Shown here one piece after another: positions 30,625 to 46,958 of a DNA stretch of 64,000 bases (position 1 is the stretch's first letter; every line of letters starts with the position of its first letter). This DNA is from Cellvibrio sp. KY-YJ-3 (GTDB lineage Bacteria; Pseudomonadota; Gammaproteobacteria; Pseudomonadales; Cellvibrionaceae), in the NCBI RefSeq assembly GCF_008806955.1, contig NZ_CP031727.1:2556001-2620000 (forward strand), written 5' to 3'. The position numbers were made by a program, and so were the translations under genes. Under the pieces are notes generated by a model. It did no database searches and was not told the DNA's origin. It was given only the letters and a program-made list of their open reading frames with translations.

Positions 30625-30861
30625 GTTAAATCCCAAGGTTGCTTGTAAACAGTACAGAATTAATTGTTAGGAAGGTCTTGCTACGGAGTCTGTAGCCTAA
30701 GCAAGTTTTATGAATGTTTCGCAACGGAAATGTGGCAGTTCAGTGAAGCTTTTTTGACAAAAAATTCGCGATAGTTTTAAGTCGATACCCGCATGCGCGG
30801 GCACGACAAAAAAATATTTTCAGTGATTACGTTACGTGCGGGAGTAAAATATTTTTGAGGG

Positions 30862-33715: not shown

Positions 33716-34342
33716 ATGGAAAATCCTGTTGCTGTTTCTTCACCTGAGGTTTCTTTTGCGCGGCTCGCCTGTGTAATTCGGTTGACTGCTTTACAGGCGG
33801 AAGTTGAATTACTACTGCACCTTTCGCAAGTAGCTGAGACCTGGGTTGATCACGTCAATAAAAACGATTATCGCGGTGGTTGGGATGTATTGCCCCTGCG
33901 CTGCCAACGCCAACACCTTAGTGCACATCCCATCCTGCAAGGTTTTGCCATAGCCAATGGCGATGACTGGGAAAACTTACCGGTATTGGATCAGTGCCCG
34001 GCAATTGCCGCCATTTTTAATCAACTGCAATGCCCCATCAAAGCGGCGCGTTTAATGCGTTTAAAAGCCGGCGCAGAAATAAAACCCCATCGCGATCAAG
34101 GGTTAAGTATTGCGTATGGCGAGGCGCGGTTACATGTGCCAATTTACACCAGTGCGGATGTAAGTTTTATTGTCGACAATAAAATTGTTCCCATGAACGC
34201 GGGTGAGTTGTGGTATTTCAACGCCGATCAAACTCACGAATTTTACAATTACGGCAGCGAAGACCGGATTAATTTGGTAATCGATTGCGTGGCTAACAAC
34301 TGGCTATGTAACGCAATTGCGACTGGTGTGCCAAATGCCTGA
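33716..34342 (+). CDS. Aspartyl/asparaginyl beta-hydroxylase-like protein
   Basis: A 208-residue protein with a cupin-type 2-oxoglutarate, Fe(II) oxygenase fold. The C-terminal half shows MRLKAGAEIKPHRDQ (His125, Asp127), RLHVPIYTSADVSF, then DQTHEFYNYG (His174) and Arg184, the set that binds iron and 2-oxoglutarate in this family. The family hydroxylates Asp or Asn residues of proteins; the target here is unknown. The ATG at 33716 is preferred over a TTG at 33647. It overlaps the following sulfotransferase gene by 8 bases, so the two are translationally coupled. Confidence 0.82.
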   Translation: MENPVAVSSPEVSFARLACVIRLTALQAEVELLLHLSQVAETWVDHVNKNDYRGGWDVLPLRCQRQHLSAHPILQGFAIANGDDWENLPVLDQCPAIAAIFNQLQCPIKAARLMRLKAGAEIKPHRDQGLSIAYGEARLHVPIYTSADVSFIVDNKIVPMNAGELWYFNADQTHEFYNYGSEDRINLVIDCVANNWLCNAIATGVPNA

Positions 34343-35492
34343 ATTTTATGCGGAATACTGCGCGTTAATTAGCTCCAGCGAGCAGCTTGAACAATGTAAA
34401 AGAGCGCATTCGCTGCAGAATTTGTTGGCGATTATCAAAAAACTATGGCATTGCCCCGAGCGTAGCGATAACCAGTTGCTGGATGATATCGCGCAACTCA
34501 ATCAATTTCCCATAACTGAAAATCAGGCCCAGTTTGCAAAGAATTGGTTGCCTTATCGCTACCGCCCTGGGCAACAGCGCGTGTACTGGCTCTTACCCTT
34601 TGGTCATGCCACCGAGCCATTTCAGGATGAAACTATTTCCCGCTACCGTCAGCAATTGATTAATCAAATAATCCAGCCTTGTAGCACTTTGGCGGTTGCG
34701 CAACAACAGGCGATAGCGCTTGCCGATGCACAACCTGCGGGTTTTATTTTTCATTTGTCGCGCTGCGGTTCTACGTTAATTTCGGGTTGTTTATCTGAAC
34801 TGGATTCCACTTGTGTTTTTTCCGAATCGCCTTTGTTGACAGAATTATTGTTGGATAAAAACCTGTCAGTGCAAGAGCAGCAAAATTTACTGCGTGCTTT
34901 TATTAACTTGCAAGCGGCAGTGTTTCCCAATCGCCCACAGGTGATTATTAAATGGAACGCCTGGGATATTTTTTGCTGGGATTTAATTCACGCAATTTAT
35001 CCGCAAGTACCAGTGGTTTTTGTAGTGCGCAACCCGGTAGAGATTTTGGCTTCCCATCAGAAGCTAGCGGGGCGGCATATGGCGGGTGAACCAGGGTTAG
35101 CACAATTTAATAGCATGTTTTCAAGGGCGACTAATCATCTTTCGCTGTTGCAGTATCGCACTGATGTATTGCGGAGCTTGCAGCAGAAAATGCACAGTAT
35201 TCAGACACAAAATTCTATTTTGTGTATGGATTACAGCCAATTGAAATATTCGGGCATAAACACCATTTTTCGCTATTTTGACTTGACGCTAACAGGGGAA
35301 GAACAGACAGCGGTGATGCAGCGACTCGGTATTCACTCAAAAACCCCCGGCGTATTGTTCACACAGGATTCACTGAGTAAACAATCATTATTTTCTGCCG
35401 CGGATAAACACTATATAGAGCAACAGTTGTTCGTTACTTATGAGCTGCTGCGTGAAGCGGCCACCTGCTTGGCTGAGCCAGAGGGTTATTAA
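34335..35492 (+). CDS. Sulfotransferase-like protein with N-terminal extension
   Basis: A 385-residue protein. About 130 unrecognised N-terminal residues precede a sulfotransferase-type P-loop, HLSRCGSTLIS at 140-150, which binds the 5'-phosphosulfate of PAPS. The 3'-phosphate-binding region follows as VVFVVRNPVEILASH. The family moves sulfate from PAPS to a hydroxyl. The substrate is unknown; neighbours suggest a protein. It starts within the last codons of the hydroxylase gene and ends 9 bases before the GNAT gene, so the three form one operon. Confidence 0.78.
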   Translation: MPEFYAEYCALISSSEQLEQCKRAHSLQNLLAIIKKLWHCPERSDNQLLDDIAQLNQFPITENQAQFAKNWLPYRYRPGQQRVYWLLPFGHATEPFQDETISRYRQQLINQIIQPCSTLAVAQQQAIALADAQPAGFIFHLSRCGSTLISGCLSELDSTCVFSESPLLTELLLDKNLSVQEQQNLLRAFINLQAAVFPNRPQVIIKWNAWDIFCWDLIHAIYPQVPVVFVVRNPVEILASHQKLAGRHMAGEPGLAQFNSMFSRATNHLSLLQYRTDVLRSLQQKMHSIQTQNSILCMDYSQLKYSGINTIFRYFDLTLTGEEQTAVMQRLGIHSKTPGVLFTQDSLSKQSLFSAADKHYIEQQLFVTYELLREAATCLAEPEGY

Positions 35493-35501
35493 GGAGTTGT
35501 A

Positions 35502-35987
35502 ATGGAAAAAAATATCTTTTTGCCTGCCGGGATTTGTGTGCGTTTAGCGGATGCTACAGATGATGCATTTTTATTTTCACTGTTTTGCGAGGCGCGACCT
35601 GAATTAGCCTATTTACCGCTCCCCCCTGCACAGGTGGAAACCTTATTGGCTCAGCAATACCAATTACAGCAGCGCGGTTATGCCAATCAATATCCCACCG
35701 CCAGAAATTGGATTATTGAGTGTGAGTCACAAGTCGTTGGCAAGATCATGCTGGCTGAACTGGTAAATTTTATACACATTGTTGATTTTGTTATCGCATT
35801 TAGTTGGCGCAGCCGGGGTATAGGTTCAGCGGTATTGAATGCAGTAAAGCACTATGCGAGCGCGCAATCCTTAGGCCTGAGCTTGCAAGTTGAGCGTCAA
35901 AATATTGCGGCAAAACGGCTTTACACCCGAATTGGTTTTAATGTTTGTCAATTAACTGTCACGCATCAGGCGATGGAGTGCAAATAA
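35502..35987 (+). CDS. GNAT family N-acetyltransferase
   Basis: A 161-residue acyl-CoA N-acyltransferase fold. The acetyl-CoA loop is visible as FSWRSRGIGSAVL (motif A), followed by LQVERQNIAAKRLYTRIGF (motif B), typical of RimI/RimJ-like members that act on proteins or small amines. An AAGGAG ribosome site overlaps the preceding stop. Third gene of the hydroxylase-sulfotransferase-GNAT operon, just before the tail-collar genes. Confidence 0.84.
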   Translation: MEKNIFLPAGICVRLADATDDAFLFSLFCEARPELAYLPLPPAQVETLLAQQYQLQQRGYANQYPTARNWIIECESQVVGKIMLAELVNFIHIVDFVIAFSWRSRGIGSAVLNAVKHYASAQSLGLSLQVERQNIAAKRLYTRIGFNVCQLTVTHQAMECK

Positions 35988-36160
35988 CTGTGTTATGGCT
36001 CGTAATGTGAATTAGTTCTGCTATACCTTAGTCTTCAATTTGGAGTTGGCGTGTCCACGGAGAATGATCTTTTATTCAGGAAAGAATGGCTGTTGTTAGC
36101 AGTGTGTTATGGCGCGTGGGTCTGCGCTTAATCATTCAAGGATTACATTTCATAATCAAC

Positions 36161-36179
36161 CCTGACCTTTAAGGACAGG
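36161..36179. promoter_or_regulatory. 19-bp imperfect palindrome before the tail-collar genes
   Basis: CCTGACCTT (36161-36169), T, AAGGACAGG (36171-36179): a 9-bp inverted repeat with one mismatch. It lies 23 bases before the first tail-collar ATG and just before its ribosome site, followed by TTTT. It could be an operator or a weak terminator/attenuator in the leader. Confidence 0.4.
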
Positions 36180-36202
36180 TTTTCTGAATCAAGGAGTTAT
36201 TG

Positions 36203-36724
36203 ATGTCTGATTTTTTCCTCGGAGAAATTAAGCTTCTCCCTTACAACTGGGCACCCAAGTATTGGACTTTGTGTGCCGGGCAATTACTGCCAATCAATTC
36301 CAACCAAGCCCTTTTTTCACTTCTGGGCACTACTTATGGTGGTGATGGAGTCACTACCTTTGCATTGCCTGATTTGCGTGGCCGCGTACCGGTTCACCCA
36401 AATGTAAATGCGGGTCTGCCCCAAGGCAGCAAAGCGGGTGTGGAAAATGTAACACTCACTACTGCTAACTTGCCCGCACACAACCACGGCGTGTCTGCTA
36501 GTACTAGCCAAGGCGATAACCTGGCTTTTGCCAACAATTATATTGCGGGCGGTAAGGGTAATGCGGGCGACGTTAATTTGTATGAAGCTCCAAACAGCCT
36601 GCAACCATTGAATCCGGCATCGGTATCCAATACCGGCGGCAGCCAGCCTCACGAAAATTGCCAGCCTTCGTTGGTACTCAATTATTGCATTGCCACCCAA
36701 GGCATTTACCCTTCACGTAACTGA
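36203..36724 (+). CDS. Phage tail-collar domain protein, MdpB-like (1 of 3)
   Basis: A 173-residue protein built on the phage tail collar domain of MdpB (microcystin-dependent protein) type. It starts SDFFLGEIKLLPYNWAP, then GTTYGGDGVTTFALPDLRGR, LPAHNHG and ends YPSRN. Conserved Cys24 and Cys162 may pair. The HNH triad matches the HxH metal site of the T4 short-tail-fibre collar. No signal peptide. Its role in bacteria is unknown. AAGGAG lies before the ATG at 36203. First of three tandem paralogues 10-20 bases apart. Confidence 0.9.
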   Translation: MSDFFLGEIKLLPYNWAPKYWTLCAGQLLPINSNQALFSLLGTTYGGDGVTTFALPDLRGRVPVHPNVNAGLPQGSKAGVENVTLTTANLPAHNHGVSASTSQGDNLAFANNYIAGGKGNAGDVNLYEAPNSLQPLNPASVSNTGGSQPHENCQPSLVLNYCIATQGIYPSRN

Positions 36725-36744
36725 CTCACATAAGGAGAATCACA

Positions 36745-37272
36745 ATGGATCCATATCTCGGTGATATCCGCCTTTTTGCGGGTAGTTTTGCACCAGCTGG
36801 CTGGGTGCTGTGCGATGGTCGTTTGCTCGCCATCAGCGAAAATGATGCGTTATTTGCAATTGTCGGAACCACCTTTGGCGGCGATGGTGTGAGTACGTTT
36901 GGCGTTCCTGATTTGCGCGGTCGGCTTCCAGTTGGCCAAGGAAATGGAGCGGGGTTGACGCCGCGGGTTATCGGCCAACAGTTTGGTGTTGAGTCGGTCA
37001 CCCTGCTAACCACGCAAATCCCTGCGCACAACCATACGTTTAATGCGAGTACTACCGCACCGTCTACTTCTCCCAGCCCGGCGGGAACGGTATTTGCCCA
37101 CAGTGATACCGATAAAATTTATGTTTCATCTCCAACTGGGCCAGTGCCAGAGACGTTGAACGCTGCCACTGTGCAAGCTGCTGGAGGCTCCCAGCCGCAC
37201 AATAACATCATGCCGACCACTGCGATTAACTACATCATGTGTGTCTCTGGCATTTTCCCATCGCGCAATTAA
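36745..37272 (+). CDS. Phage tail-collar domain protein, MdpB-like (2 of 3)
   Basis: A 175-residue paralogue of its neighbours. It begins DPYLGDIRLFAGSFAPAGW, has GTTFGGDGVSTFGVPDLRGR, then IPAHNHTF, and ends FPSRN. Cysteines are Cys23 and Cys166. The segment after the HNH motif, where phage fibres carry the receptor-binding tip, differs from the other two copies. An AAGGAG site precedes the ATG. No signal peptide. Confidence 0.9.
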   Translation: MDPYLGDIRLFAGSFAPAGWVLCDGRLLAISENDALFAIVGTTFGGDGVSTFGVPDLRGRLPVGQGNGAGLTPRVIGQQFGVESVTLLTTQIPAHNHTFNASTTAPSTSPSPAGTVFAHSDTDKIYVSSPTGPVPETLNAATVQAAGGSQPHNNIMPTTAINYIMCVSGIFPSRN

Positions 37273-37282
37273 GGAGTGAACT

Positions 37283-37822
37283 ATGGAACCTTTTATCGGT
37301 GAAATCCGTTTGTTGCCATTTAGCTTTGCTCCCAAAAATTGGGCGTTATGTAATGGCCAAATACTACCAATCCAATCCAATACGGCGCTGTTCTCCATCA
37401 TTGGTACCACCTATGGCGGTAACGGCACCACCAATTTCCAGTTGCCTAATTTGCAAGGCCAAGTAGTTGCTGGTGTAGGCCAAGGGCCGGGATTGAGCCC
37501 TTGGAGTTGGGGAGAGCAGCAGGGTGAGAATGGGATGACCTTACTCACGACTGAAATTCCCGCCCATAATCATTTGATCACTGCCATGAACAATCCGGGT
37601 AATGCATCAACACCGGCAGCAGATGCTTATCTGGCAAAAGATGTGCGTGGTGGTAGCGGTGGGACAATAAACTACATGCTGACTCCCGGAACAACCAATA
37701 CGACTATGGCGCCACAAACCATAGGTGTAAATGGTGGTGGGCAGGCCCATGAAAATCGTCAGCCGTTTTTGGCATTAAATTATTGCATTGCGCTGGCTGG
37801 TGTTTTTCCTACGCGCAATTGA
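37283..37822 (+). CDS. Phage tail-collar domain protein, MdpB-like (3 of 3)
   Basis: A 179-residue paralogue beginning EPFIGEIRLLPFSFAPKNW, with GTTYGGNGTTNFQLPNLQGQ, IPAHNHLI and the ending FPTRN. Cysteines are Cys23 and Cys168. It has the longest loop between the HNH motif and the C-terminus of the three. A terminator follows 9 bases after the stop, closing the tail-collar operon. Confidence 0.9.
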   Translation: MEPFIGEIRLLPFSFAPKNWALCNGQILPIQSNTALFSIIGTTYGGNGTTNFQLPNLQGQVVAGVGQGPGLSPWSWGEQQGENGMTLLTTEIPAHNHLITAMNNPGNASTPAADAYLAKDVRGGSGGTINYMLTPGTTNTTMAPQTIGVNGGGQAHENRQPFLALNYCIALAGVFPTRN

Positions 37823-37831
37823 TAAGTGTAT

Positions 37832-37857
37832 TCCCGGCGTAACTGCCGGGATTTTTT
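37832..37857 (+). terminator. Terminator of the tail-collar operon
   Basis: A 6-bp GC stem (CCCGGC at 37833-37838, GCCGGG at 37845-37850) extended by one T-A pair, with a 6-base loop and six T. Confidence 0.85.
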
Positions 37858-37917
37858 CATAAAGTTTTAACCCAATACCTTTTTCACTCAATATTTTTTG
37901 AATCAAGTAAAACATCA

Positions 37918-38778
37918 ATGCCAACTAAATTGCATTTTATTTCCGGATTGCCTCGCTCAGGATCAACTCTCCTGGCAGGAATACTACGACAAAATCCGCG
38001 CTTCCATGCCGCTATGAGCAGCCCTGTGGCTGGCTTGGTAAATGGCGCGCTTGAGCAGATGGGCGCGGGCAGTGAATCCTATTCGTTTTTTGATGAACAA
38101 AAACGCAAGCGTATTTGTAAGGCGCTCCTCGATGCCTATTATGCCGATAAAGACCAACCGGTAATTTTTGATACCAACCGTCATTGGACGGCGCGGCTGC
38201 ATCAATTAATTGAATTAGTGGATGACTTTAAAGTGATTTGCTGTGTGCGTAATCCCGCGTGGATTATGGACAGTTTTGAAATGATTTACCGAAAAAATCC
38301 CTTCGACTACAGCCGCATGTTTAATGCTGGGTCACGTCAGACGGTTTACAGCCGCTGTGAGTCATTAATCAATGCTGGTGGTGCGGTGGGATCTGCATGG
38401 ACTGCATTAAAAGAAGCTTATTACGGTGAGTTTTCCGAGCGTTTGTTGCTGGTGGATTACGACCTACTTACCCAGCATCCGGCACGCACGCTGGAATTAA
38501 TTTATCGCTTTATTGATGAGCCGCAATTCGATCACGATTTTAATAATGTGGACTACTCAGAAAACGAATTCGACCAAAATCTGGGAGTAAAAGGTTTGCA
38601 CAGTGTGAAGAAAAAGGTGGAGTTCAAAAGTCGGCGCAGTATTTTGCCACCGGATTTATTTGTGAAATATCAGGAAATGGATTTTTGGCAGGATCAGGCG
38701 GGAACTTCCGCCAATATTATCGCGAGTAAGAAACCAGCGGCGACAGGTGCGCCTCTAAACGGGAATTTATCATCATGA
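37918..38778 (+). CDS. Sulfotransferase family protein
   Basis: A 286-residue cytosolic sulfotransferase. The PAPS 5'-phosphosulfate loop is GLPRSGSTLLAG (10-21) and the 3'-phosphate site is VICCVRNPAWIMDSF. The rest is the usual alpha/beta fold, ending in a basic KKKVEFKSRRS segment. It differs from the longer sulfotransferase upstream and is not a duplicate of it. It overlaps the giant-protein gene by the 4 bases ATGA, so the two are translationally coupled, which suggests that the giant protein, or the fibre-like proteins, may be its substrate. Confidence 0.87.
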   Translation: MPTKLHFISGLPRSGSTLLAGILRQNPRFHAAMSSPVAGLVNGALEQMGAGSESYSFFDEQKRKRICKALLDAYYADKDQPVIFDTNRHWTARLHQLIELVDDFKVICCVRNPAWIMDSFEMIYRKNPFDYSRMFNAGSRQTVYSRCESLINAGGAVGSAWTALKEAYYGEFSERLLLVDYDLLTQHPARTLELIYRFIDEPQFDHDFNNVDYSENEFDQNLGVKGLHSVKKKVEFKSRRSILPPDLFVKYQEMDFWQDQAGTSANIIASKKPAATGAPLNGNLSS

Positions 38779-41700
38779 GAAATCTTTTATTCAGTGGGCT
38801 TTCTTCGCTGTTGTTACCCATGGGGGCCTATGCAGGGCCAACAGCCGGGGCGAGCTATCAGCGGACTTATTTAAGTGCATCAATCAATGCATCAACGGCA
38901 GATTTGTCGCACGCTAGTGTATTGCCGCGTGACTTGGTTGATTTGTCCGGTGATCAACTGGATATTCAAGTTGCGCACGCTGTGCGTGAATTGGTGATTG
39001 TGGATGACGGGGTCGCGGAAACGGATAAAGCCGTATTGCGTCGCGCGTTAAAGCCAGGTGTGGAAATGGTGCATATCAGTTCTGCCGCAGCGGGTTTGCC
39101 GCAATTGATTGCAGCGCTGGAAGGGCATAAAAATCTTGCGGCAATCCATATTATTTCCCACGCCGAAGCCGGTGCTATTTTGCTCGGTAATTCGCGTATT
39201 ACCGCTGAAAATATCCAGCGCGAAGTTCAGGCTTTCGCTGCTTTGAATGGTGCTGTGCGTGAAGGCGGTGACTTATTATTTTACGGTTGTGACCTCGCGG
39301 CTAATAAAGCTGGTGAAGAGTTGCTGGATATCATCAGCAATAAAACCGGTTTGGATGTGGCGGCATCTAATAATTTAACCGGTAATTCCGAGTTGCAAGG
39401 CGACTGGGATTTGGAAGTTAAACGCGGGAATGTTGAAGCGGCTTTAGCGTTTTCAGAAAAATCCCTGAAAGATTTTTCCAATGTGTTAGTGGCTTCGTCT
39501 GGGACGAAAGATTTTACATCTGGCTGGACGGATAATAACAGCAGTCTGACCTCGACAGACTTCATTGTTACAGGTTTTGACAGTGGAGGTAGTCCGATTT
39601 CTGATCTTAGTTTTGTTATACCCGGCTATGCTAACGCTGCGTATTTGCAGACTGGGTACGATTCATCAACCACCGGGACTTATTTCCAGGTTGCTGTCGA
39701 CGGAACGAATACTGGGAGTTTTGAACTGACTGGTTTGATTGCGGGAGAAGCGCCTGCATTAGGTGGTAATTTTACAAATGTGCATATTGTGGGAATCAAG
39801 CCGGACAATAGCACGATTACATCTGGCGAACTTGATGGAACAGGGGGAACCAGTGATACCTTCACCTTTGGCGCAGGTCAGCTAACCAATTTTTCCGGTG
39901 TACAGCTGAAAGCGTTCAAGTTGGTGTTCGATACTACCAGCGGGTCTAGTACCAAACCCTTCTTTGAATTCCGTAGTTTTAGTATCACCGGCGCTCTTGC
40001 TCCGTCACCCACCATCACTTCCGCCACCTACAACACCACCTCTGGTGCGTTGGTGGTTACCGGTACCAACTTCACCGCAACCGGAGGTGCAACCAATGAT
40101 GTTGATGCTAGCGACTTTACCCTGACCGGTGAGGGGGGCAGCACTTACACGCTTACTGATACGGACGATGTGGAAATTTCGTCGGCCACTAGCTTCACCC
40201 TGACACTCAGTGCAACTGATCGCGCGGCAGCGAATTTAATCATCAATAAAACTGGCACCAGTTCTACTGGCGCTACTACCTATAACCTTGCCGGTGCAGC
40301 TGGTTTTATAGCGGCTTCGGGCGCAACAGCTGACCTGACGGGTAACGGCATTACGGCTACCGTTGCTGCGCCCACGGTGACTTCCGCTACCTATGATGCG
40401 AGTACCGGGGCATTGGTTGTGACTGGCACTAACTTGAAAAAACTGAATGGTGCTGATAATGAAATTATTGCGAATAAATTCACGCTAAGAGGTGAGGGCG
40501 GCACTACCTATACCCTCACAGATACGGCGAATGTGGAGATCTCATCCGGCACCAGCTTTACCCTGAGCCTGAGTGCGACCGATAAGGCCGGCGCTAACCT
40601 GATCCTCAATAAAAACGGTACGCTTTCTACGGATATTTCCACCTACAACTTAGCGGCCGCAGAAGATTGGAATGCCGGTGCAGATGCAGCAGTGACGATT
40701 GCTGACACTACCGGTAATGGCGTTACCGTGAGCAATGTTGCTGTACCCACCATTACCAGCTCCACTTATGATGTGTCGACAGGTGCTCTGGTCGTCACTG
40801 GCACCGGGCTGCTGAAGTCACAGGGCGCCACCAATGATATAGTGGCCAATAAATTTACGTTCACAGGTCAGGGCGCGGCGACTTACGCATTGACCGATAC
40901 CGCGAATGTTGAAGTTACCTCCGGAACCAGTTTTACCCTGACGCTTAGCGCTACTGATCGCAATGCCGTAGGCGCATTGCTGAATAAAAATGGCACCAGT
41001 GCAAATGATGCAACCACCTATAACCTTGCTGCTGCTGAGGATTGGAATGCGGGTGCTGATTCGGCTGTAGTTACTGCGGATTTGACGGGTAATGGCATTA
41101 CCACCAGTAATGCATTTACAGCCCCGAACGCCCCGACCATCGGCACAGCTACCGCCGGTGATGCTCAAGTTTCTGTCACCTTTACTGCGCCGGGTAGTAA
41201 CGGCGGTTCAGCAATTACCACTTATACCGCTACGGCTAGCCCCGGTGGTGCATTTGGTACCTGTGCTGGTCCCGCTGCTTGTACTGCTACGGTAACTGGC
41301 CTTAGTAATGGGACTGCTTACACCTTTACCGTTACTGCGACTAACGCCATAGGCACCAGTGTTGCGTCGGGGGCTTCCAACTCGGCGACACCTAAAGGAA
41401 ACCAAACCATCACTTTTGCTAACCCGGGCACACAAAACTTTGGAACTACTCCAACCCTCACGGCGACTGCGGACTCTGCAACAGGAACTGATAATTTAAC
41501 GGTCACTTTCAGCTCATCTACCACTGGTGTTTGTACCATCACCAGCGGCGGTGCACTGACCTTTGTAACGGCCGGTAGCTGTACCATTGATGCAGATCAG
41601 GCGGGTGACTCGGCTACCAATTCAGCACCTACCGTCAGCCGCACCTTTACTGTCAATGCGATAGTGCCGGATGCGCCGACTATTGGTACTGCAACTGCAG

Positions 41701-44700
41701 GTGATACCCAGGCGGATGTGACCTTTACCGCACCAGTTAATACCGGCGGGGCAGCGATTACCGGTTATACCGTGACCTCTAACCCTGGTGGTTTTACTGG
41801 AACAGGTGCAGGTTCACCAATTACTGTGTCCAGTTTGACCAACGGTGTTTCATACACCTTTACCGTAACGGCGACTAACTCGGCGGGTACTGGTGCGGCT
41901 TCTGGTGCATCTAACTCGATCACGCCGGCATCACCGCAAACCATTACCTTTGCTAATCCAGGCACTCAGAACTTTGGGACTTCGCCAACATTGTCAGCTA
42001 CTTCAACTTCAAGTCTGACGGTCAGCTTCACATCATCTACAACAGGTGTTTGTACTGTTAGTGGTACAACTCTGACTTTCCTGTCGGCGGGTATCTGTAC
42101 GATTAATGCGGACCAAGCGGGCGATTCATCCTTCCTGGCTGCATCGCAAGTGAGCCAGTCTTTTAGTGTTAGTCCCGTAGTTCCCGGTGCACCAACCATA
42201 GGGACTGCAATCGCCGGTGATACTCAGGCGAGCGTTGCCTTTGTTGCCCCGGTGAATATCGGCGGCTCGGCGATTACCGGTTATACCGTGACGGTAAACC
42301 CAGCGGATGTTGCGCCTGTGATGGGCGCATCTTCACCGATTGTGGTGACCGGGCTGACTAACGGACAGGCCTACACTTTTACCGTGACGGCGGATAACGT
42401 TGCTGGTACTGGCCCTGCGTCCAGTGCATCCAACTCGATAACGCCCAAGTCGATCCAGACGGTTACCTTTGCTAACCCTGGGCCGCGAAACTTTGGTACC
42501 ACGCCAACACTGATTGCAACTACGGATGCGACTGGTTTGACGCCGACCTTTACCTCATCAACTCCCGGTGTTTGTACGATTACGAGCGGCGGTACATTGA
42601 CTTTCGTCACTGTAGGTACCTGTACGATTAATGCTGATCAGGCGGGTGACGCTAGCTACTTGGCCGCACCCCAGGTGACCAATAGCTTCACCGTAAATGC
42701 GGTAGTGCCTGGTGCACCGGTTATTGGCAGTGTCACTGCTGGCGACACCCAGGCTAGCGTTAGTTTCAGTGCACCCGCCTTTACTGGTGGTGCAGCGGTT
42801 ACCGGTTATACCGTCACCGCTAACCCCGGCGGAGCGACTGCAACCGGTGCTGGTTCACCAATCACCTTTACCGGCCTGACCAACGGCACCAGTTATACCT
42901 TTACCGTAACCGCAACCAACAGTGTGGGGACTGGTTCCGCATCGGCGGCGTCTGCTGCGGTTACACCTAACGGTCCGCCATCTATCAACGGCACTCCGGC
43001 GCTTACTGTTAATGAGGACAGCGCTTACAGTTTTGTACCCAGTGCAACAGATACTATGGGCGACACTTTGACTTTCAGTATTGCCAACAAGCCTGCTTGG
43101 GCCGCATTTGACACTACTACTGGCGCCTTGACGGGTACGCCGATAAACGCGGATGTCGGTACTACTAGCGCTATTGTGATCAGCGTTAGCGATGGCAGCT
43201 TGAGTTCAAGTTTGGCCGCATTTGATCTAACTGTGGTGAATATTAATGATGCACCTCTAATCAGCGGTACACCGACGACGTCGGTTGATCAGGACGTTGC
43301 CTACAGCTTCACCCCAACCGCGAGCGATGTGGATGTGGGCGATGTGCTGACTTACAGCATCACCAACAAACCGACCTGGGCCGCGTTTGATACCGCAACC
43401 GGTGCACTGACCGGCACACCAACCAATGTGGATGTGGGCACTACCACCGGAATCGTCATCACTGTCAGCGACGGCACCTTGAGCGCAAGCCTGGCGGCGT
43501 TTGACCTGACTGTGACCAACGTGAACGAGGCGCCCGTGATTAGCGGTACGCCGACGACGTCGGTTGATCAGGACATTGCTTACAGCTTCACCCCAACCGC
43601 GAGCGATGTGGATGTGGGCGATGTACTGACTTACAGCATCACCAATCAACCCACCTGGGCCGCGTTTGACACTGCAACCGGTGCCTTGACCGGCACACCA
43701 ACCAATACCGATGTGGGCACTACCACCGGAATCGTCATCACTGTGAGCGACGGCACCTTGAGCGCAAGCCTGGCGGCGTTTGACCTGACTGTGACCAACG
43801 TGAATGAGGCGCCTGTGATTAGCGGTACGCCATTGGTATCAGTCGATCAGGACGTTGCTTACAGCTTTATCCCAACCGCGAGCGATGTGGATGTGGGCGA
43901 TGTGCTGACTTACAGCATCACCAACAAACCGACCTGGGCCGCGTTTGATACCGCAACCGGTGCCTTGACCGGTACACCAACCAATACGGATGTGGGCACT
44001 ACCACCGGAATCGTCATCACTGTCAGCGACGGCACCTTGAGCGCAAGCCTGGCGGCGTTTGACCTGACTGTGACCAACGTGAACGAAGCGCCCGTGATTA
44101 GCGGTACGCCATTGGTATCAGTCGATCAAGACGTTGCTTACAGCTTCACCCCAACCGCAAGTGACGTGGATGTAGGCGATGTGCTGACTTACAGCATCAC
44201 CAATCAACCCACCTGGGCCGCGTTTGATACCGCCACCGGTGCTTTGACCGGCACACCAACCAATACCGATGTGGGCACTACCACCGGAATCGTGATCACT
44301 GTCAGCGACGGCACCTTGAGCGCAAGCCTGGCGGCGTTTGACCTGACCGTGACCAACGTGAACGAGGCGCCCGTGATTAGCGGTACGCCATTGGTATCAG
44401 TCGATCAAGACGTTGCTTACAGCTTCACCCCAACCGCAAGTGACGTGGATGTAGGCGATGTGCTGACTTACAGCATCACCAACAAACCCACTTGGGCCGC
44501 GTTTGACACTGCAACCGGTGCTTTGACCGGCACACCAACCAATACCGATGTGGGCACTACCACCGGAATCGTCATCACCGTCAGCGATAGTGTGCTGAGT
44601 GCATCATTACCAGCCTTCAATCTGGAAGTGATTGAAACCATCGACCCATTGCAGCCGGTGGTTACTGCACCGGAAGATATCGCCATCAACGCCACCGGGC

Positions 44701-46958
44701 TTTACACACCGGTAAGCCTGCGTCAGTTGTTGAGCCTCAACGCCTCGGCGACCCAAGAGCAGGTGGATGCGATTCTCAACAGCATGGCCAGTGATGGGGT
44801 GAGTGGTAATACCTGTTGCACCACCAATCCGGAAGGCTTGAACGTCAACAATGTATTGCTCTTGCCACCGGGTCGTCATGAAGTGAGCTGGAGTGCGACC
44901 AACGGAGCCGATGTCACGGGTACCGCTACGCAAGTGGTCGATATCCGTCCGCTGGTATCCCTGAGCAAGTCACAAATCGCCATCCGTGGCAGTGCGGTGG
45001 AATTCCGTGTGCTGCTCAATGGCAAAGCGCCGGAATACCCTGTCGCGATACCCTACGTGATCGACGCGGCTACTACCGCAGGCACTACCGAACACAATCT
45101 GGTCAATGGCCTAGCCAACTTCACCGAAGCAGGGCAGCTGGAAGTGATAGTGCCAGTGCAACTGGCTACCCTCAGTGGCTTGAGCGACAGTGAACTGGTG
45201 GTACGTTTGGATGGCGATATCAATGCCGGTGTCGCCAACAGCCACACCATCCGTATCCGCGAAGGCAATATCGCCCCGATGGTGAGCCTGCAGTTGACGC
45301 AAGGGGGTGTAAACACCATCCAGATTACCCCTGCCGGCGGCCCGGTCACCCTGACCGCCACCGTCACCGACCTGAACCCCGGCGATACCCACAGCTACAA
45401 CTGGTCAGCCAGTGACACAGCGCTGGGCGATACCGACGGCAACCCGGTCAACAACACCCTGGTGTTCGACCCGAGCAACTTGAGCGGTCGTCATCAGGCA
45501 CAAGTGACCGTCACCGACACGGGTGGTGCCACTGCCAACGTACAGCTCTACTTCCGTGTCGTACCGAGCCTGCCAGTGCTAGTACCGGATGCCGACACCG
45601 ACGGCGATGGTGTTACTGACACCAACGAAGGCTTTGGCGACACCAACGGCAACGGTATCCCCGACTATCTGGACAACATGCCCACCAGCAACATCCTGCC
45701 GCAGCAGGGCGCGATCACGAACGCCTACCTGATCGAATGTGATCCCGGTGTGCGGTGTGGCCTCGGCCAATTTGCGTTGGTCGGCGAGTCTGGCGGTGTG
45801 CAAATCCTTAACGAAGAGCTGGGCACTACCGGTGAATTGATCATCGACCCCACCTTTGAACCGGTGGGAGGCATCTTTGACTTCGTGATCAACGACCTGC
45901 CAACCCTGGGTCAAAGTGTGCGCATAGTGATCCCGCAAGTAGCGCCGATTCCCGCCAATGCGGTCTATCGCAAATACCAGGATGGCCGTTGGGTCAACTT
46001 CATCAGCAATGCCAACAACAGCATCTTCTCCGCCCCCGGCAACCCCGGTTACTGCCCGCCACCGGGCAACCCGGATTGGACACCCGGCCTGACCGCCGGC
46101 AACCTCTGCGTCCAGCTGACCATTGAAGACGGAGGGCCGAACGACGATGACGGCTTGATCAACGCCGCGATTGTGGACCCGGGCGCCGTGAGTGTTGCAC
46201 TGCCGGTGGAACCACCCCCTCCGCCACCGCCAGCGCCGGATGTAAACCTCAAATCCAAAGGCGGTGGTGCGATAGATGGACTCTGGCTCTTGTTATTAGG
46301 AGGCGTATTGATGATGAAATGGATCACGGGAACAAACCGCCGGGGCTTGATCGCCCTGGCCCTGATTGCCACCTCGGCCTCCAGCCAGGCGCTGACCGAC
46401 GGCAAAGCCTATGTGCGGGTAGATGTTTACAAAGTAGAAGGCGACCAACGCGAAGCGACGTTCACTCAAGCCCTGAGCGCCGCCGGTCACGAGTTCACGG
46501 TTGATAAGTACGACATCGACCGTCGCGGCTACCAAATCGCCTTTGGCTACCAATGGCACGACTACACCTACAGCGAACTGGGCTATCTGGAACTGGGCGA
46601 TGTAACAGTGGATATGACCCTCGACGGCGACACCGACCTGACGGCATTCAAACGCGACTTCGCGAATGCCTACCCGGTCAGCGCCAGCGGCTGGACAGCA
46701 GTGCAGGGGTTAACGCTGCTGCGCAACCAGCCGGTGAATATCTCATTGGAAGCGGGCGCCTATTTCTGGCAGGACGAAAAAGAGACCAACCAGCAACCCA
46801 TCACCCTGCAAAGTGACAGTGGTGTTGCACCGCTGGCGGGTATTCGGTTGGATTTAGGGCTGACCAAAAACCTGTCCTACGGGTTGAGTGTAAGACGTAT
46901 TTATCTGGCGGATCAGGTAGTGGATATGTATTCGTTATCGGGGCGTTTGCGGTTTTAG
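38775..46958 (+). CDS. Giant DUF4347 surface protein with FN3, cadherin-like repeats and a fused barrel domain
   Basis: One open frame of 2727 residues. The N-terminal signal peptide (about 1-20, AYA) is followed by a DUF4347 domain (about 70-235) with a His129-Cys172 pair (IISHAEAG, FYGCDLA). Next come an unrecognised segment (240-410), three 120-residue repeats (about 413-770, TSATYNTTSG type), alternating FN3 and Ig-like modules (about 780-1400), six cadherin-like domains of 93 residues (about 1404-1955), a linker, a calcium-binding DxDxDG region (about 2272-2303), a choice-of-anchor U-like domain (about 2310-2490), a Gly-rich plus hydrophobic tail (2496-2512) and a final beta-barrel-like domain (about 2540-2727). 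Surface exposure and adhesion are likely. The last segment may be a separate product (next entry). Cotranslated with the sulfotransferase upstream. Confidence 0.85.
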   Translation: MRNLLFSGLSSLLLPMGAYAGPTAGASYQRTYLSASINASTADLSHASVLPRDLVDLSGDQLDIQVAHAVRELVIVDDGVAETDKAVLRRALKPGVEMVHISSAAAGLPQLIAALEGHKNLAAIHIISHAEAGAILLGNSRITAENIQREVQAFAALNGAVREGGDLLFYGCDLAANKAGEELLDIISNKTGLDVAASNNLTGNSELQGDWDLEVKRGNVEAALAFSEKSLKDFSNVLVASSGTKDFTSGWTDNNSSLTSTDFIVTGFDSGGSPISDLSFVIPGYANAAYLQTGYDSSTTGTYFQVAVDGTNTGSFELTGLIAGEAPALGGNFTNVHIVGIKPDNSTITSGELDGTGGTSDTFTFGAGQLTNFSGVQLKAFKLVFDTTSGSSTKPFFEFRSFSITGALAPSPTITSATYNTTSGALVVTGTNFTATGGATNDVDASDFTLTGEGGSTYTLTDTDDVEISSATSFTLTLSATDRAAANLIINKTGTSSTGATTYNLAGAAGFIAASGATADLTGNGITATVAAPTVTSATYDASTGALVVTGTNLKKLNGADNEIIANKFTLRGEGGTTYTLTDTANVEISSGTSFTLSLSATDKAGANLILNKNGTLSTDISTYNLAAAEDWNAGADAAVTIADTTGNGVTVSNVAVPTITSSTYDVSTGALVVTGTGLLKSQGATNDIVANKFTFTGQGAATYALTDTANVEVTSGTSFTLTLSATDRNAVGALLNKNGTSANDATTYNLAAAEDWNAGADSAVVTADLTGNGITTSNAFTAPNAPTIGTATAGDAQVSVTFTAPGSNGGSAITTYTATASPGGAFGTCAGPAACTATVTGLSNGTAYTFTVTATNAIGTSVASGASNSATPKGNQTITFANPGTQNFGTTPTLTATADSATGTDNLTVTFSSSTTGVCTITSGGALTFVTAGSCTIDADQAGDSATNSAPTVSRTFTVNAIVPDAPTIGTATAGDTQADVTFTAPVNTGGAAITGYTVTSNPGGFTGTGAGSPITVSSLTNGVSYTFTVTATNSAGTGAASGASNSITPASPQTITFANPGTQNFGTSPTLSATSTSSLTVSFTSSTTGVCTVSGTTLTFLSAGICTINADQAGDSSFLAASQVSQSFSVSPVVPGAPTIGTAIAGDTQASVAFVAPVNIGGSAITGYTVTVNPADVAPVMGASSPIVVTGLTNGQAYTFTVTADNVAGTGPASSASNSITPKSIQTVTFANPGPRNFGTTPTLIATTDATGLTPTFTSSTPGVCTITSGGTLTFVTVGTCTINADQAGDASYLAAPQVTNSFTVNAVVPGAPVIGSVTAGDTQASVSFSAPAFTGGAAVTGYTVTANPGGATATGAGSPITFTGLTNGTSYTFTVTATNSVGTGSASAASAAVTPNGPPSINGTPALTVNEDSAYSFVPSATDTMGDTLTFSIANKPAWAAFDTTTGALTGTPINADVGTTSAIVISVSDGSLSSSLAAFDLTVVNINDAPLISGTPTTSVDQDVAYSFTPTASDVDVGDVLTYSITNKPTWAAFDTATGALTGTPTNVDVGTTTGIVITVSDGTLSASLAAFDLTVTNVNEAPVISGTPTTSVDQDIAYSFTPTASDVDVGDVLTYSITNQPTWAAFDTATGALTGTPTNTDVGTTTGIVITVSDGTLSASLAAFDLTVTNVNEAPVISGTPLVSVDQDVAYSFIPTASDVDVGDVLTYSITNKPTWAAFDTATGALTGTPTNTDVGTTTGIVITVSDGTLSASLAAFDLTVTNVNEAPVISGTPLVSVDQDVAYSFTPTASDVDVGDVLTYSITNQPTWAAFDTATGALTGTPTNTDVGTTTGIVITVSDGTLSASLAAFDLTVTNVNEAPVISGTPLVSVDQDVAYSFTPTASDVDVGDVLTYSITNKPTWAAFDTATGALTGTPTNTDVGTTTGIVITVSDSVLSASLPAFNLEVIETIDPLQPVVTAPEDIAINATGLYTPVSLRQLLSLNASATQEQVDAILNSMASDGVSGNTCCTTNPEGLNVNNVLLLPPGRHEVSWSATNGADVTGTATQVVDIRPLVSLSKSQIAIRGSAVEFRVLLNGKAPEYPVAIPYVIDAATTAGTTEHNLVNGLANFTEAGQLEVIVPVQLATLSGLSDSELVVRLDGDINAGVANSHTIRIREGNIAPMVSLQLTQGGVNTIQITPAGGPVTLTATVTDLNPGDTHSYNWSASDTALGDTDGNPVNNTLVFDPSNLSGRHQAQVTVTDTGGATANVQLYFRVVPSLPVLVPDADTDGDGVTDTNEGFGDTNGNGIPDYLDNMPTSNILPQQGAITNAYLIECDPGVRCGLGQFALVGESGGVQILNEELGTTGELIIDPTFEPVGGIFDFVINDLPTLGQSVRIVIPQVAPIPANAVYRKYQDGRWVNFISNANNSIFSAPGNPGYCPPPGNPDWTPGLTAGNLCVQLTIEDGGPNDDDGLINAAIVDPGAVSVALPVEPPPPPPPAPDVNLKSKGGGAIDGLWLLLLGGVLMMKWITGTNRRGLIALALIATSASSQALTDGKAYVRVDVYKVEGDQREATFTQALSAAGHEFTVDKYDIDRRGYQIAFGYQWHDYTYSELGYLELGDVTVDMTLDGDTDLTAFKRDFANAYPVSASGWTAVQGLTLLRNQPVNISLEAGAYFWQDEKETNQQPITLQSDSGVAPLAGIRLDLGLTKNLSYGLSVRRIYLADQVVDMYSLSGRLRF
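43260..44654 (+). repeat. Five near-identical 279-bp tandem repeats
   Basis: Units begin at 43260, 43539, 43818, 44097 and 44376, each exactly 279 bases (93 codons), nearly identical at DNA level. They code for cadherin-like domains opening with ISGTP and including YSFTPTASDVDVGDVLTYS. A diverged sixth copy precedes them from about 42984. Such repeats can gain or lose units by recombination without shifting the frame. Confidence 0.92.
46311..46958 (+). CDS. Possible internally started outer-membrane beta-barrel protein
   Basis: In the same frame as the giant protein, a perfect AGGAGG (46298-46303) lies 7 bases before two adjacent ATG codons (46311, 46314). The product would be 215 residues: a basic start (MMKWITGTNRR), a hydrophobic core (GLIALALIATSA) and a signal-peptidase site near SSQA, followed by alternating polar and aromatic strands ending YSLSGRLRF, the C-terminal aromatic typical of outer-membrane barrels. 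This arrangement suggests independent initiation. The same bases also continue the giant frame, so both products, or a fusion, are possible. Confidence 0.55.
   Translation: MMKWITGTNRRGLIALALIATSASSQALTDGKAYVRVDVYKVEGDQREATFTQALSAAGHEFTVDKYDIDRRGYQIAFGYQWHDYTYSELGYLELGDVTVDMTLDGDTDLTAFKRDFANAYPVSASGWTAVQGLTLLRNQPVNISLEAGAYFWQDEKETNQQPITLQSDSGVAPLAGIRLDLGLTKNLSYGLSVRRIYLADQVVDMYSLSGRLRF

What the first reader, a model, noticed from the sequence alone, without database searches (positions are those of the whole stretch)
33716..46958. Candidate undescribed system: three tail-collar proteins with hydroxylase, two sulfotransferases, acetyltransferase and giant surface protein
Two tightly packed operons combine protein-modifying enzymes (Asp/Asn hydroxylase-like, two unlike sulfotransferases, GNAT) with three MdpB-type tail-collar paralogues and a DUF4347 giant protein. 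Phage structural genes are absent, so this is not a prophage. The layout suggests that the fibre-like or surface proteins are hydroxylated, sulfated or acetylated and shown outside. MdpB-like proteins have no settled function.
Basis: partly seen in the sequence, partly recalled or inferred. Interest (0 to 1): 0.82.

Follow-up and report, generated by a model that had tools for sequence, protein, structure and literature searches.

The report
Bacterial phage-fibre-like trio with capping enzyme
A Cellvibrio-like bacterium carries three small proteins that resemble the tip of a virus's landing leg, beside enzymes that probably cap and decorate them and a giant surface-type protein; the trio and its capping enzyme recur side by side in very different bacteria, and we found no description of them as a system.

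Summary
The genes are real and placed as described, in a Cellvibrio-like genome. The co-occurrence test is passed, but the core is collar plus GNAT acetyltransferase, not the sulfotransferases. In 60 loci picked by Collar alone, 39 have this GNAT, among them 23 of 27 triplets; 20 control stretches have none. The triplet is an old ordered set: for 126 of 139 members the nearest triplet relative in another locus holds the same position. Three results point to N-terminal capping. A formyltransferase replaces GNAT (41 loci: 34 versus 7, none both). Neither stands by signal-peptide collars (0 of 10 loci; leaderless 105 of 119). The predicted mature N-terminus keeps its register. Best reading: a leaderless gp12-like trimeric knob, acetyl- or formyl-capped by its own enzyme. 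Hyd-ST1 and ST2-giant are separable modules; ST2's nearest solved relatives are protein-tyrosine sulfotransferases. Capping, heterotrimer, export and display are inferred. Ten searches of open-licence papers showed no description in the listings seen.

The parts
33716..34342 (+). Hyd: 2OG/Fe hydroxylase of the Asp/Asn/Arg hydroxylase family (ORF open from 33647, conserved start 33716)
   Evidence: PF05118 66.6 bits; H125-R126-D127, H174 and R184 invariant in nine aligned sequences, the window's included; best solved relative L-proline cis-4-hydroxylase 4p7w, E 8.9e-12
34335..35492 (+). ST1: divergent sulfotransferase-like protein (ORF open from 34317)
   Evidence: PF13469 below cut-off; 13 of 19 family members match PF13469; next to Hyd, also in loci without collars
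35502..35987 (+). GNAT: RimI/RimL-like N-acetyltransferase, the most constant neighbour of collars
   Evidence: PF00583; 49 of 49 aligned members, the window's included, match the RimI model at E<=1e-3; model pLDDT 95.5; Foldseek ranks 4-9 are RimL-type entries
36203..36724 (+). ColA: first collar protein (start 36200 TTG or 36203 ATG)
   Evidence: PF07484 89.9 bits; AAGGAG before the start
36745..37272 (+). ColB: second collar protein
   Evidence: PF07484 92.9 bits; AAGGAG before the start
37283..37822 (+). ColC: third collar protein
   Evidence: PF07484 91 bits; AAGGAG before the start
37832..37851 (+). terminator-like hairpin followed by six T, closing the collar unit
   Evidence: consensus scan only
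37918..38778 (+). ST2: sulfotransferase, partner of the giant (4-base overlap)
   Evidence: PF13469 57 bits; profile matches protein-tyrosine sulfotransferase 1 at E 1.1e-5; 11 of 11 and 2 of 2 ST2 loci have DUF4347
38775..46958 (+). Giant protein of 2727 aa with a signal-peptide-like start (by eye)
38991..39488 (+). DUF4347 domain of the giant
   Evidence: PF14252 158.6 bits, residues 73-238
45867..46193 (+). choice-of-anchor U domain of the giant
   Evidence: NF041766 44 bits, cut-off 32, residues 2365-2473
46260..46313 (+). internal GlyGly-CTERM-like sorting signal of the giant
   Evidence: TIGR03501 14.4 bits, just under the cut-off of 15.5
46497..46877 (+). OmpA-like barrel at the C-terminus of the giant
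   Evidence: PF01389 22.6 bits, cut-off 21, residues 2575-2701; homologues lie in giant frames of relatives

Best explanation
The window holds one member of a widespread, cell-encoded collar module. Three phage-fibre-tip-like chains (ColA, ColB, ColC) are made from a unit with strong ribosome-binding sites and no signal peptide. N-terminal Met is removed where residue 2 is small, and the neighbouring RimI/RimL-like GNAT acetylates the new N-terminus; in other lineages a formyltransferase does the equivalent job. The capped chains fold into a compact trimer round the HxH metal site known from T4 gp12 (recalled), probably one A, one B and one C. Two separable modules are added here: Hyd plus ST1 (hydroxylation, perhaps followed by sulfation) and ST2 plus the DUF4347 giant (tyrosine-type sulfation of the giant). 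The giant is exported and cut at its internal GlyGly signal, which frees its C-terminal outer-membrane barrel. The trimer most likely works as a binding knob at the cell surface together with the giant. Shown: gene conservation, order, linkage, GNAT/formyltransferase replacement, N-terminal register, signal-peptide exclusion. Inferred: acetylation, heterotrimer, metal, splitting of the giant, export route, surface role.
For: GNAT in 39 of 60 collar-picked loci and 23 of 27 triplets, 19 of these 39 within 83 bases of a collar, against 0 of 20 control stretches. GNAT or formyltransferase, never both at the thresholds used: 34, 7, 0 both, 0 neither in 41 loci. Signal-peptide collars: 0 of 10 loci have either, leaderless 105 of 119. 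Register: 98 of 105 Met-cleaved type have Met six before the conserved G, 34 of 37 Met-retained type five before. Formyltransferase loci are all Met-retained in 8 of 10, GNAT loci in 10 of 95. Triplet order: 126 of 139. HxH in 139 of 139 triplet members; H153 and N155 in 134 and 135 of 139, against 6 and 11 of 56 singles. Trio plus GNAT in Paenibacillus, Deinococcus, Comamonas, Rhizobium. In Acaryochloris the annotated acetyltransferase AM1_3686 and collars AM1_3688-3690 change in the same direction (PMC11633204 passages). ST2-DUF4347 link and TPST1 similarity.
Against: No protein was assayed. 14 of 119 leaderless loci have neither enzyme, among them four triplets, L035, L102, L173 and L175, of which only L035 has full flanks. 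Single collars have GNAT in only 13 of 27. The acidic residue after the N-terminus is also kept in signal-peptide collars, so it is no sign of acetyltransferase specificity by itself. GNAT scores far under the RimI cut-off (39 against 86.4 bits), and Foldseek lists uncharacterised and polyamine acetyltransferases equally high. One locus, L188, has GNAT and a weak 29-bit formyltransferase hit that the 50-bit threshold left out. Loci are related by descent, so the p-values overstate. Leaderless collars have no known export route; a surface role rests on the giant neighbour only (30 of 49 loci without signal-peptide collars have an ORF of 900 aa or more within 4 kb, control 5 of 20). The collar model was poor (pLDDT 59), so no trimer was seen. 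Within the genus a contractile sheath goes with collars (12 of 14 against 2 of 7, p 0.017), which favours a rival.
Confidence: 0.5

Rival explanations
1. The acyltransferases, hydroxylase, methyltransferase and sulfotransferases tailor a small molecule, sugar or short peptide, and the collars are its carrier or receptor rather than the substrate.
For: GNAT also matches PseH and WecD-type sugar acetyltransferases and a formyltransferase of the clusters matches ArnA; several collar loci carry asparagine-synthase-like, B2-like, HprK-like and ABC genes as in lasso-peptide clusters.
Against: The Pfam matches of the eight window genes show no scaffold-making enzyme. Small-molecule acylation does not predict loss of the enzyme when collars have a signal peptide, nor the match between formyltransferase and Met-retained collars.
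Confidence: 0.2
2. Collars are tail-fibre parts of a contractile injection system, tailocin or prophage encoded elsewhere.
For: PF07484 is a phage tail domain; phage minor tail proteins match ColB over 92% of its length at about 37% identity. Among 57 relatives a sheath match occurs in 13 of 20 Collar-positive and 11 of 37 Collar-negative genomes (p 0.013), inside the genus 12 of 14 against 2 of 7 (p 0.017), outside it 1 of 6 against 9 of 30. In Acaryochloris sheath and baseplate genes respond to light in the same direction as the collars.
Against: The own genome has no match to sheath (PF04984, PF17482) or baseplate J (PF04865) at E<=1e-3, and 7 of 20 Collar-positive relatives, the own genome included, lack a sheath match. 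With only strong sheath matches the association is weaker (10 of 20 against 9 of 37, p 0.08). No tail gene lies beside the collars.
Confidence: 0.12
3. Surface adhesion island: the enzymes modify the giant protein, and the collars are an independent binding partner or chaperone; GNAT acetylates lysines or the giant.
For: Giant neighbours are common; ST2 tracks the DUF4347 giant.
Against: GNAT tracks collars better than DUF4347 giants: 23 of 27 triplets have GNAT, 7 of 27 have DUF4347 (other giant types not counted there). The giant has a signal-peptide-like start (by eye), so its mature N-terminus is made outside the cytosol.
Confidence: 0.15
4. GNAT and formyltransferase act on an aminoacyl-tRNA, not on finished protein, as GNAT toxins and Fmt do (recalled).
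For: One formyltransferase (L090) scores E 3.1e-40 with the Met-tRNA formyltransferase model.
Against: I saw no antitoxin-like partner in the gene maps, though none was searched for; Ser/Ala N-termini arise after Met removal, so tRNA acylation would not explain them.
Confidence: 0.05

Closest known systems
T4 short tail fibre gp12 and related phage tail fibres (PF07484)
   Same: Same collar domain; profile matches a long tail fibre 8kec at E 1e-8, 1ocy at 1.1e-5 and 5iv5 at 5.6e-5; HxH pair in every triplet member, which holds a metal in gp12 (recalled)
   Different: Stand-alone proteins of about 175 aa without a shaft, three ordered paralogues, no virion genes beside them, a linked acyltransferase
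RimI and RimL ribosomal-protein N-alpha-acetyltransferases
   Same: Fold (RimL-type entries at Foldseek ranks 4-9, RimI rank 17); 49 of 49 aligned members match the RimI model
   Different: Window member far below the RimI cut-off; sits beside collars
Emp1, acetyltransferase required for EsxA N-terminal acetylation (PMC10653941, abstract and outline seen)
   Same: An N-acetyltransferase acting on the N-terminus of a secreted protein; that EsxA has no signal peptide is recalled
   Different: Other export system; Emp1 serves at least 22 more proteins, whereas linkage here suggests dedication to collars
Protein-tyrosine sulfotransferases TPST1/2
   Same: Nearest solved relatives of ST2 (profile E 1.1e-5 over 200 positions)
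   Different: Weak similarity; bacterial, presumably cytosolic; target unknown; catalytic residue not checked
GlyGly-CTERM / rhombosortase sorting
   Same: GG-TM-R signal in the giant; rhombosortase over its cut-off in the own genome
   Different: Signal is internal and is followed by a second signal-like segment and a barrel; score just under the cut-off

Membership tests
Collar domain family PF07484 | score over the gathering cut-off | tested here: met
   89.9, 92.9, 91 bits against 24
Prophage, tailocin or contractile injection system | contractile sheath or baseplate J in the genome | tested here: not met
   PF04984, PF04865, PF17482: no match at E<=1e-3 in G000; other tail families not searched genome-wide
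Prophage, tailocin or contractile injection system | tail genes next to the collars | tested here: not met
   Pfam of the eight genes and two neighbours shows none besides the collars
RimI-type N-alpha-acetyltransferase | TIGR01575 cut-off | tested here: not met
   39 bits against 86.4
N-terminal acetyltransferase (by fold) | GNAT fold closest to protein N-alpha-acetyltransferases | tested here: inconclusive
   RimL-type ranks 4-9, RimI 17, but two uncharacterised acetyltransferases take ranks 1-3 and polyamine enzymes follow
N-terminal acetyltransferase (by activity) | acetylates collar N-termini | not testable with these tools
   needs mass spectrometry
Asp/Asn/Arg hydroxylase PF05118 | score over cut-off and metal-binding residues | tested here: met
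   66.6 bits; HxD and distal H invariant in nine sequences (the role of these residues is recalled)
Sulfotransferase family PF13469 | score over cut-off | tested here: inconclusive
   ST2 57 bits, met; ST1 23.3 bits against 27, not met, although 13 of 19 relatives match at E<=1e-3
Protein-tyrosine sulfotransferase | closest solved relatives and catalytic Glu | tested here: inconclusive
   closest relatives are TPST1/2; catalytic residue not checked
GlyGly-CTERM protein | signal at the extreme C-terminus, score over 15.5 | tested here: not met
   internal, 14.4 bits at best
Lasso peptide or other RiPP cluster | cyclase, B2 and precursor | tested here: not met
   no cyclase or B2 among the eight genes of the window, though such genes are in some collar loci elsewhere; a short precursor was not searched for

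The most novel reading that the evidence does not exclude
A phage-fibre tip has become a general bacterial device in at least five phyla (Pseudomonadota, Bacillota, Deinococcota, Bacteroidota, and, by the authors' annotation only, Cyanobacteria): an obligate A-B-C heterotrimer made without a signal peptide, whose three N-termini are sealed by a dedicated enzyme, acetyl in most lineages and formyl in others, an enzyme that is missing wherever the collars carry a signal peptide. In Cellvibrio and its kin it is further hydroxylated and sulfated and shown with a giant, partly tyrosine-sulfated polyprotein that is split into an exported fibre and an outer-membrane barrel by an internal sorting signal.
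Probability: 0.3. Interest if true: 0.88.

Novelty: categorically new. Interest (0 to 1): 0.72.

Why it matters
In the annotated plasmid records read here, collar proteins outside phages are named only tail fiber protein. Here they become a defined, old and common module with a testable biochemical step. If right, it gives bacteria in which protein N-termini are acetylated or formylated by a cluster-encoded enzyme, across phyla, with nature's own swap between the two caps, and a direct assay: weigh the intact proteins.

Tried and rejected
Considered and set aside: (1) Hydroxylase acting on the conserved C-terminal Asn of collars. Genomes without this hydroxylase are split: G023 and G019 collars end in SRS, G006 and G027 collars in RN, so nothing follows. 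(2) Acidic residue 2 as an acetyltransferase signature: also kept in signal-peptide collars, dropped. (3) Lasso-type ring closure on collar N-termini: GNAT is present in most such loci too, so a free amine would be lacking; not pursued. (4) AlphaFold of a collar monomer: pLDDT 59, not used for a fold search. (5) Collar alignment as query of genome contigs: not possible. (6) Class-level collar sample (20 of 185 genomes): the 19 loci fetched show no Hyd; GNAT in three, a DUF4347 giant with barrel in two. (7) Papers: ten searches. Searches found no paper; the others gave listings, mostly a part of the matches (20 of 55, 2 of 2, 10 of 10,115, 20 of 384, 12 of 1,130, 6 of 6, 40 of 7,561), and no title or abstract start seen describes the module. 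The library holds open-licence papers only and no preprints.

The L091 tail was checked and does match the barrel (E 8e-7).

Rows dropped: of 67 collar genomes not already held, 60 were fetched, one place each; further places in some genomes were not fetched; seven genomes (G274, G310, G313, G324, G359, G526, G559) were left out because the best collar lay in a frame over 300 aa, while G321 (frame 617) was kept. L032, L033 and L042 were dropped as copies of L049, L050 and L052; one search repeats the counts after removing one of each of six near-copies (93 GNAT, 9 formyltransferase, 14 none; signal peptide 0 of 10). In one search six of 135 loci could not be classed by N-terminus (4 without enzyme, 2 with GNAT). 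The register count covers 147 of 206 short-N-terminus collars, those with the G[EDQ] motif found, five of them unassigned. Plasmid loci: 18 were read for (a nineteenth, L232, later), out of 74 and 55 matching records, picked to spread genera. The 20 control stretches were set by hand at round coordinates in 20 of the 60 genomes.

Full report
WHAT IS THERE. The window lies in a 4.49 Mb genome whose closest named loci are Cellvibrio. On the + strand stand Hyd, ST1, GNAT, three collar genes, ST2 and a 2727-residue giant. The three collars are the only Collar matches in the genome; the giant is one of three DUF4347 genes. GNAT and all three collars have AAGGAG before the start; Hyd, ST1, ST2 and giant do not. 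A terminator-like hairpin follows the third collar. I therefore read three units: Hyd-ST1-GNAT, ColA-ColB-ColC, ST2-giant.

IT RECURS. Among 57 relatives (own genome included) 20 have a Collar match. The hydroxylase subfamily (E below 1e-80) is in 14 of 57, all of them among those 20, and by the coordinates it lies within about 6 kb of a collar in 13 of the 14. Weaker hydroxylase matches (E 1e-16 to 1e-21) occur in three Collar-negative genomes. A pattern scan of 84,980 species genomes with the hydroxylase gave 49 loci. In the fetched stretches 41 of 49 have collars (15 three, 1 two, 25 one), 36 ST1, 35 GNAT, 32 a PhyH-methyltransferase-like protein, 17 DUF4347, 11 ST2. Eight have no collar: three Arenimonas, Delftia, one Hahella, two Ferrimonas and a Pseudomonadales contig whose stretch ends just after Hyd; four of these keep Hyd next to ST1. 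In one Cellvibrio-genus relative, G018, Hyd-ST1 stand alone at what by eye is the old site, and the collars with GNAT, ST2 and giant sit elsewhere.

THE CORE IS COLLAR PLUS GNAT. To avoid choosing by enzyme, I took 60 loci by Collar alone from the phylum search (69 of 349 genomes positive at E<=1e-18; selection in Tried and rejected). GNAT of this subfamily is in 39 of 60: 23 of 27 triplets, 3 of 6 pairs, 13 of 27 singles; DUF4347 in 16, Hyd in 5, ST1 in 5. Twenty 20-kb control stretches from 20 of the same genomes have no match to GNAT, collar, Hyd, ST1, or the eight accessory queries printed (GNAT there by the A3 profile). The own genome has one strong member of this GNAT subfamily (177 bits; the next has 45). 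Outside the Pseudomonadota the plasmid records show trio plus GNAT in Paenibacillus and Deinococcus and trio plus formyltransferase in Spirosoma. In the 18 plasmid loci scanned, all 14 leaderless triplets have one of the two enzymes (13 GNAT, 1 formyltransferase), three single collars have neither, and one signal-peptide triplet has neither. In the cyanobacterium Acaryochloris, PMC11633204 lists acetyltransferase AM1_3686 and collars AM1_3688 and 3689 in its Table 2 for strain MU13 (log2 -3.4, -2.6, -3.2), and 3686, 3688, 3689 and 3690 for strain MBIC11017 (-3.7, -4.0, -3.9, -3.2; passages). Those are the authors' annotations; I did not see the sequences. Phage sheath and baseplate genes stand in the same Table 2.

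THREE POINTERS TO THE N-TERMINUS. First, a formyltransferase (PF00551, PF02911) stands in for GNAT. Of 41 hydroxylase-plus-collar loci 34 have GNAT only, 7 formyltransferase only, none both, none neither within 5 kb (Fisher p 4e-8); in the 60-locus set 39, 2, 0 and 19 (p 0.12; a weak 29-bit hit in L188, which has GNAT, was under the 50-bit threshold). Second, over 135 collar loci, 105 of 119 leaderless ones have one of the two enzymes within 5 kb, while 0 of 10 with signal-peptide collars do, and 2 of 6 unclassed (p 8e-9; phylum sample alone 39 of 46 against 0 of 7, p 2e-5). Third, the start is kept in register: where residue 2 is small, so that Met should be removed, Met stands six residues before the conserved G in 98 of 105; where Met should stay, five before in 34 of 37 (the Met rule is recalled), so the predicted mature N-terminus falls on the same residue. 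Formyltransferase loci have only Met-retained collars in 8 of 10, GNAT loci in 10 of 95 (p 6e-6). Loci share ancestry, so these p-values overstate the evidence. The simplest common cause is that both enzymes put an acyl group on the collar N-terminus. The GNAT is predicted with high confidence (pLDDT 95.5) and resembles RimL and RimI, but also uncharacterised and polyamine acetyltransferases. Against: 14 leaderless loci have neither enzyme, some on short contigs, one (L035) a full triplet with flanks in a family-level relative.

THE TRIO. In a tree of 215 collars, 126 of 139 triplet members have as nearest triplet relative in another locus the member of the same position (41 of 47 first, 41 of 46 second, 44 of 46 third). 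The three genes are thus an old ordered set. HxH is present in all 139 triplet members; H153 and N155 (numbering) are in 134 and 135 of 139 triplet members but 6 and 11 of 56 singles. Since the collar domain of phage fibres is trimeric round such a pair (recalled; relatives 1ocy and 5iv5), one A, one B and one C per trimer is the natural reading. The single-chain model was poor, as might be expected of an intertwined trimer, so this was not tested.

THE ADD-ON MODULES. ST2 goes with DUF4347: 11 of 11 ST2 loci among the 49, 2 of 2 among the 60. ST1 goes with Hyd: 4 of 5 among the 60. Hyd's best solved relative is L-proline cis-4-hydroxylase. ST2's profile matches protein-tyrosine sulfotransferase 1 at E 1.1e-5 over 200 positions; ST1's best solved match is an uncharacterised protein, 2zq5, at E 2.6e-4. 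Other collar loci carry a PhyH-methyltransferase, a TPR-arginine-methyltransferase-like protein, subtilase, DUF4915 and DUF6916 genes. ORFs of 900 residues or more lie within 4 kb of collars in 30 of 49 phylum loci without signal-peptide collars, against 5 of 20 controls (p 0.008); ORFs of 1400 or more in 26 of 56 collar loci, against 1 of 20 whole control stretches.

THE GIANT. After choice-of-anchor U comes a GG-TM-R signal like GlyGly-CTERM (14.4 bits, cut-off 15.5), then a second hydrophobic segment (by eye), then an OmpA-like barrel. The same arrangement is in L042, L043 (twice), L053 and L091; the L091 tail, from Ferrimonas, matches the barrel at E 8e-7. Of 57 relatives 19 have a barrel match; of the 18 matches below E 1e-11, 17 lie in frames of 1286 to 4034 residues and one in a frame of 741; of the five weaker ones two are in frames of 218 and 239. 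A rhombosortase over its cut-off is in the genome. A split into an exported fibre and a barrel is likely but unproved.

THE STRONGEST POINT FOR A RIVAL. Among the 57 relatives a contractile-sheath match goes with collars (13 of 20 against 11 of 37, p 0.013), all of it inside the genus (12 of 14 against 2 of 7; outside 1 of 6 against 9 of 30); with strong sheath matches only, 10 of 20 against 9 of 37, p 0.08. The own genome nevertheless has neither sheath nor baseplate J, so the window's collars cannot need a contractile tail of these families.

VERDICT. The finding is real and more interesting than stated, for another reason. Existence of a conserved collar-acyltransferase module: about 0.95. 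N-terminal capping as its mechanism: about 0.5. Heterotrimer: about 0.5. Surface role: about 0.5. Sulfation of collars: about 0.2; of the giant by ST2: about 0.35. These figures are judgements. Of papers I saw listings, and beyond these PMC11633204 (passages and section 6 part 1 of 2), PMC3174227 (passages) and PMC10653941 (abstract and outline).

Noticed in passing
window 46200-46958: Giant protein has an internal GlyGly-CTERM-like signal followed by a second signal-like stretch and an OmpA-like barrel, as if two exported proteins were made as one chain; same in L042, L043, L053, L091.
   Followed up: partly
L036, L087, L152, L156, L164, L171, L178, L201, L207: Collar loci with asparagine-synthase-like, lasso-B2-like, HprK-like or ABC genes (not all in each): a second, RiPP-like context of collar triplets.
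   Followed up: partly
L202:6694-8544 and L140: Signal-peptide collars stand near a carbamoyltransferase-like gene and have no GNAT.
   Followed up: no
L103:10559-12046: Gene whose N-terminus looks like a flavin-dependent halogenase, about 150 bases from a collar with GNAT; judged by eye, no family search done.
   Followed up: no
A4, A3, A5 alignments: ST2 is unusually conserved between genera (10 of 13 relatives at 75-90% identity to the window copy), much more than GNAT (25-49%) or ST1 (24-58%), perhaps by recent transfer.
   Followed up: no
L035:9254-10850 and L235:8883-9518: Collars ending in SRS where most others end in RN; both genomes lack the hydroxylase, but so do G006 and G027, which keep RN.
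   Followed up: partly
L070 and L071 among nine loci: By eye, the type II secretion gene cluster lies just upstream of Hyd in Shewanella loci (ORF clusters 13-23, nine loci each); may be only the insertion site.
   Followed up: no
window 28831-30636: PhoX-type phosphatase with a collagen-like repeat behind what by eye is a lipoprotein signal.
   Followed up: no
G001-G020 (same genus): Contractile-sheath matches go with collars inside the genus (12 of 14 against 2 of 7) but not outside it.
   Followed up: partly
PMC11633204 Table 2: In Acaryochloris the collar genes respond to light in the same direction as phage-sheath and baseplate genes.
   Followed up: partly
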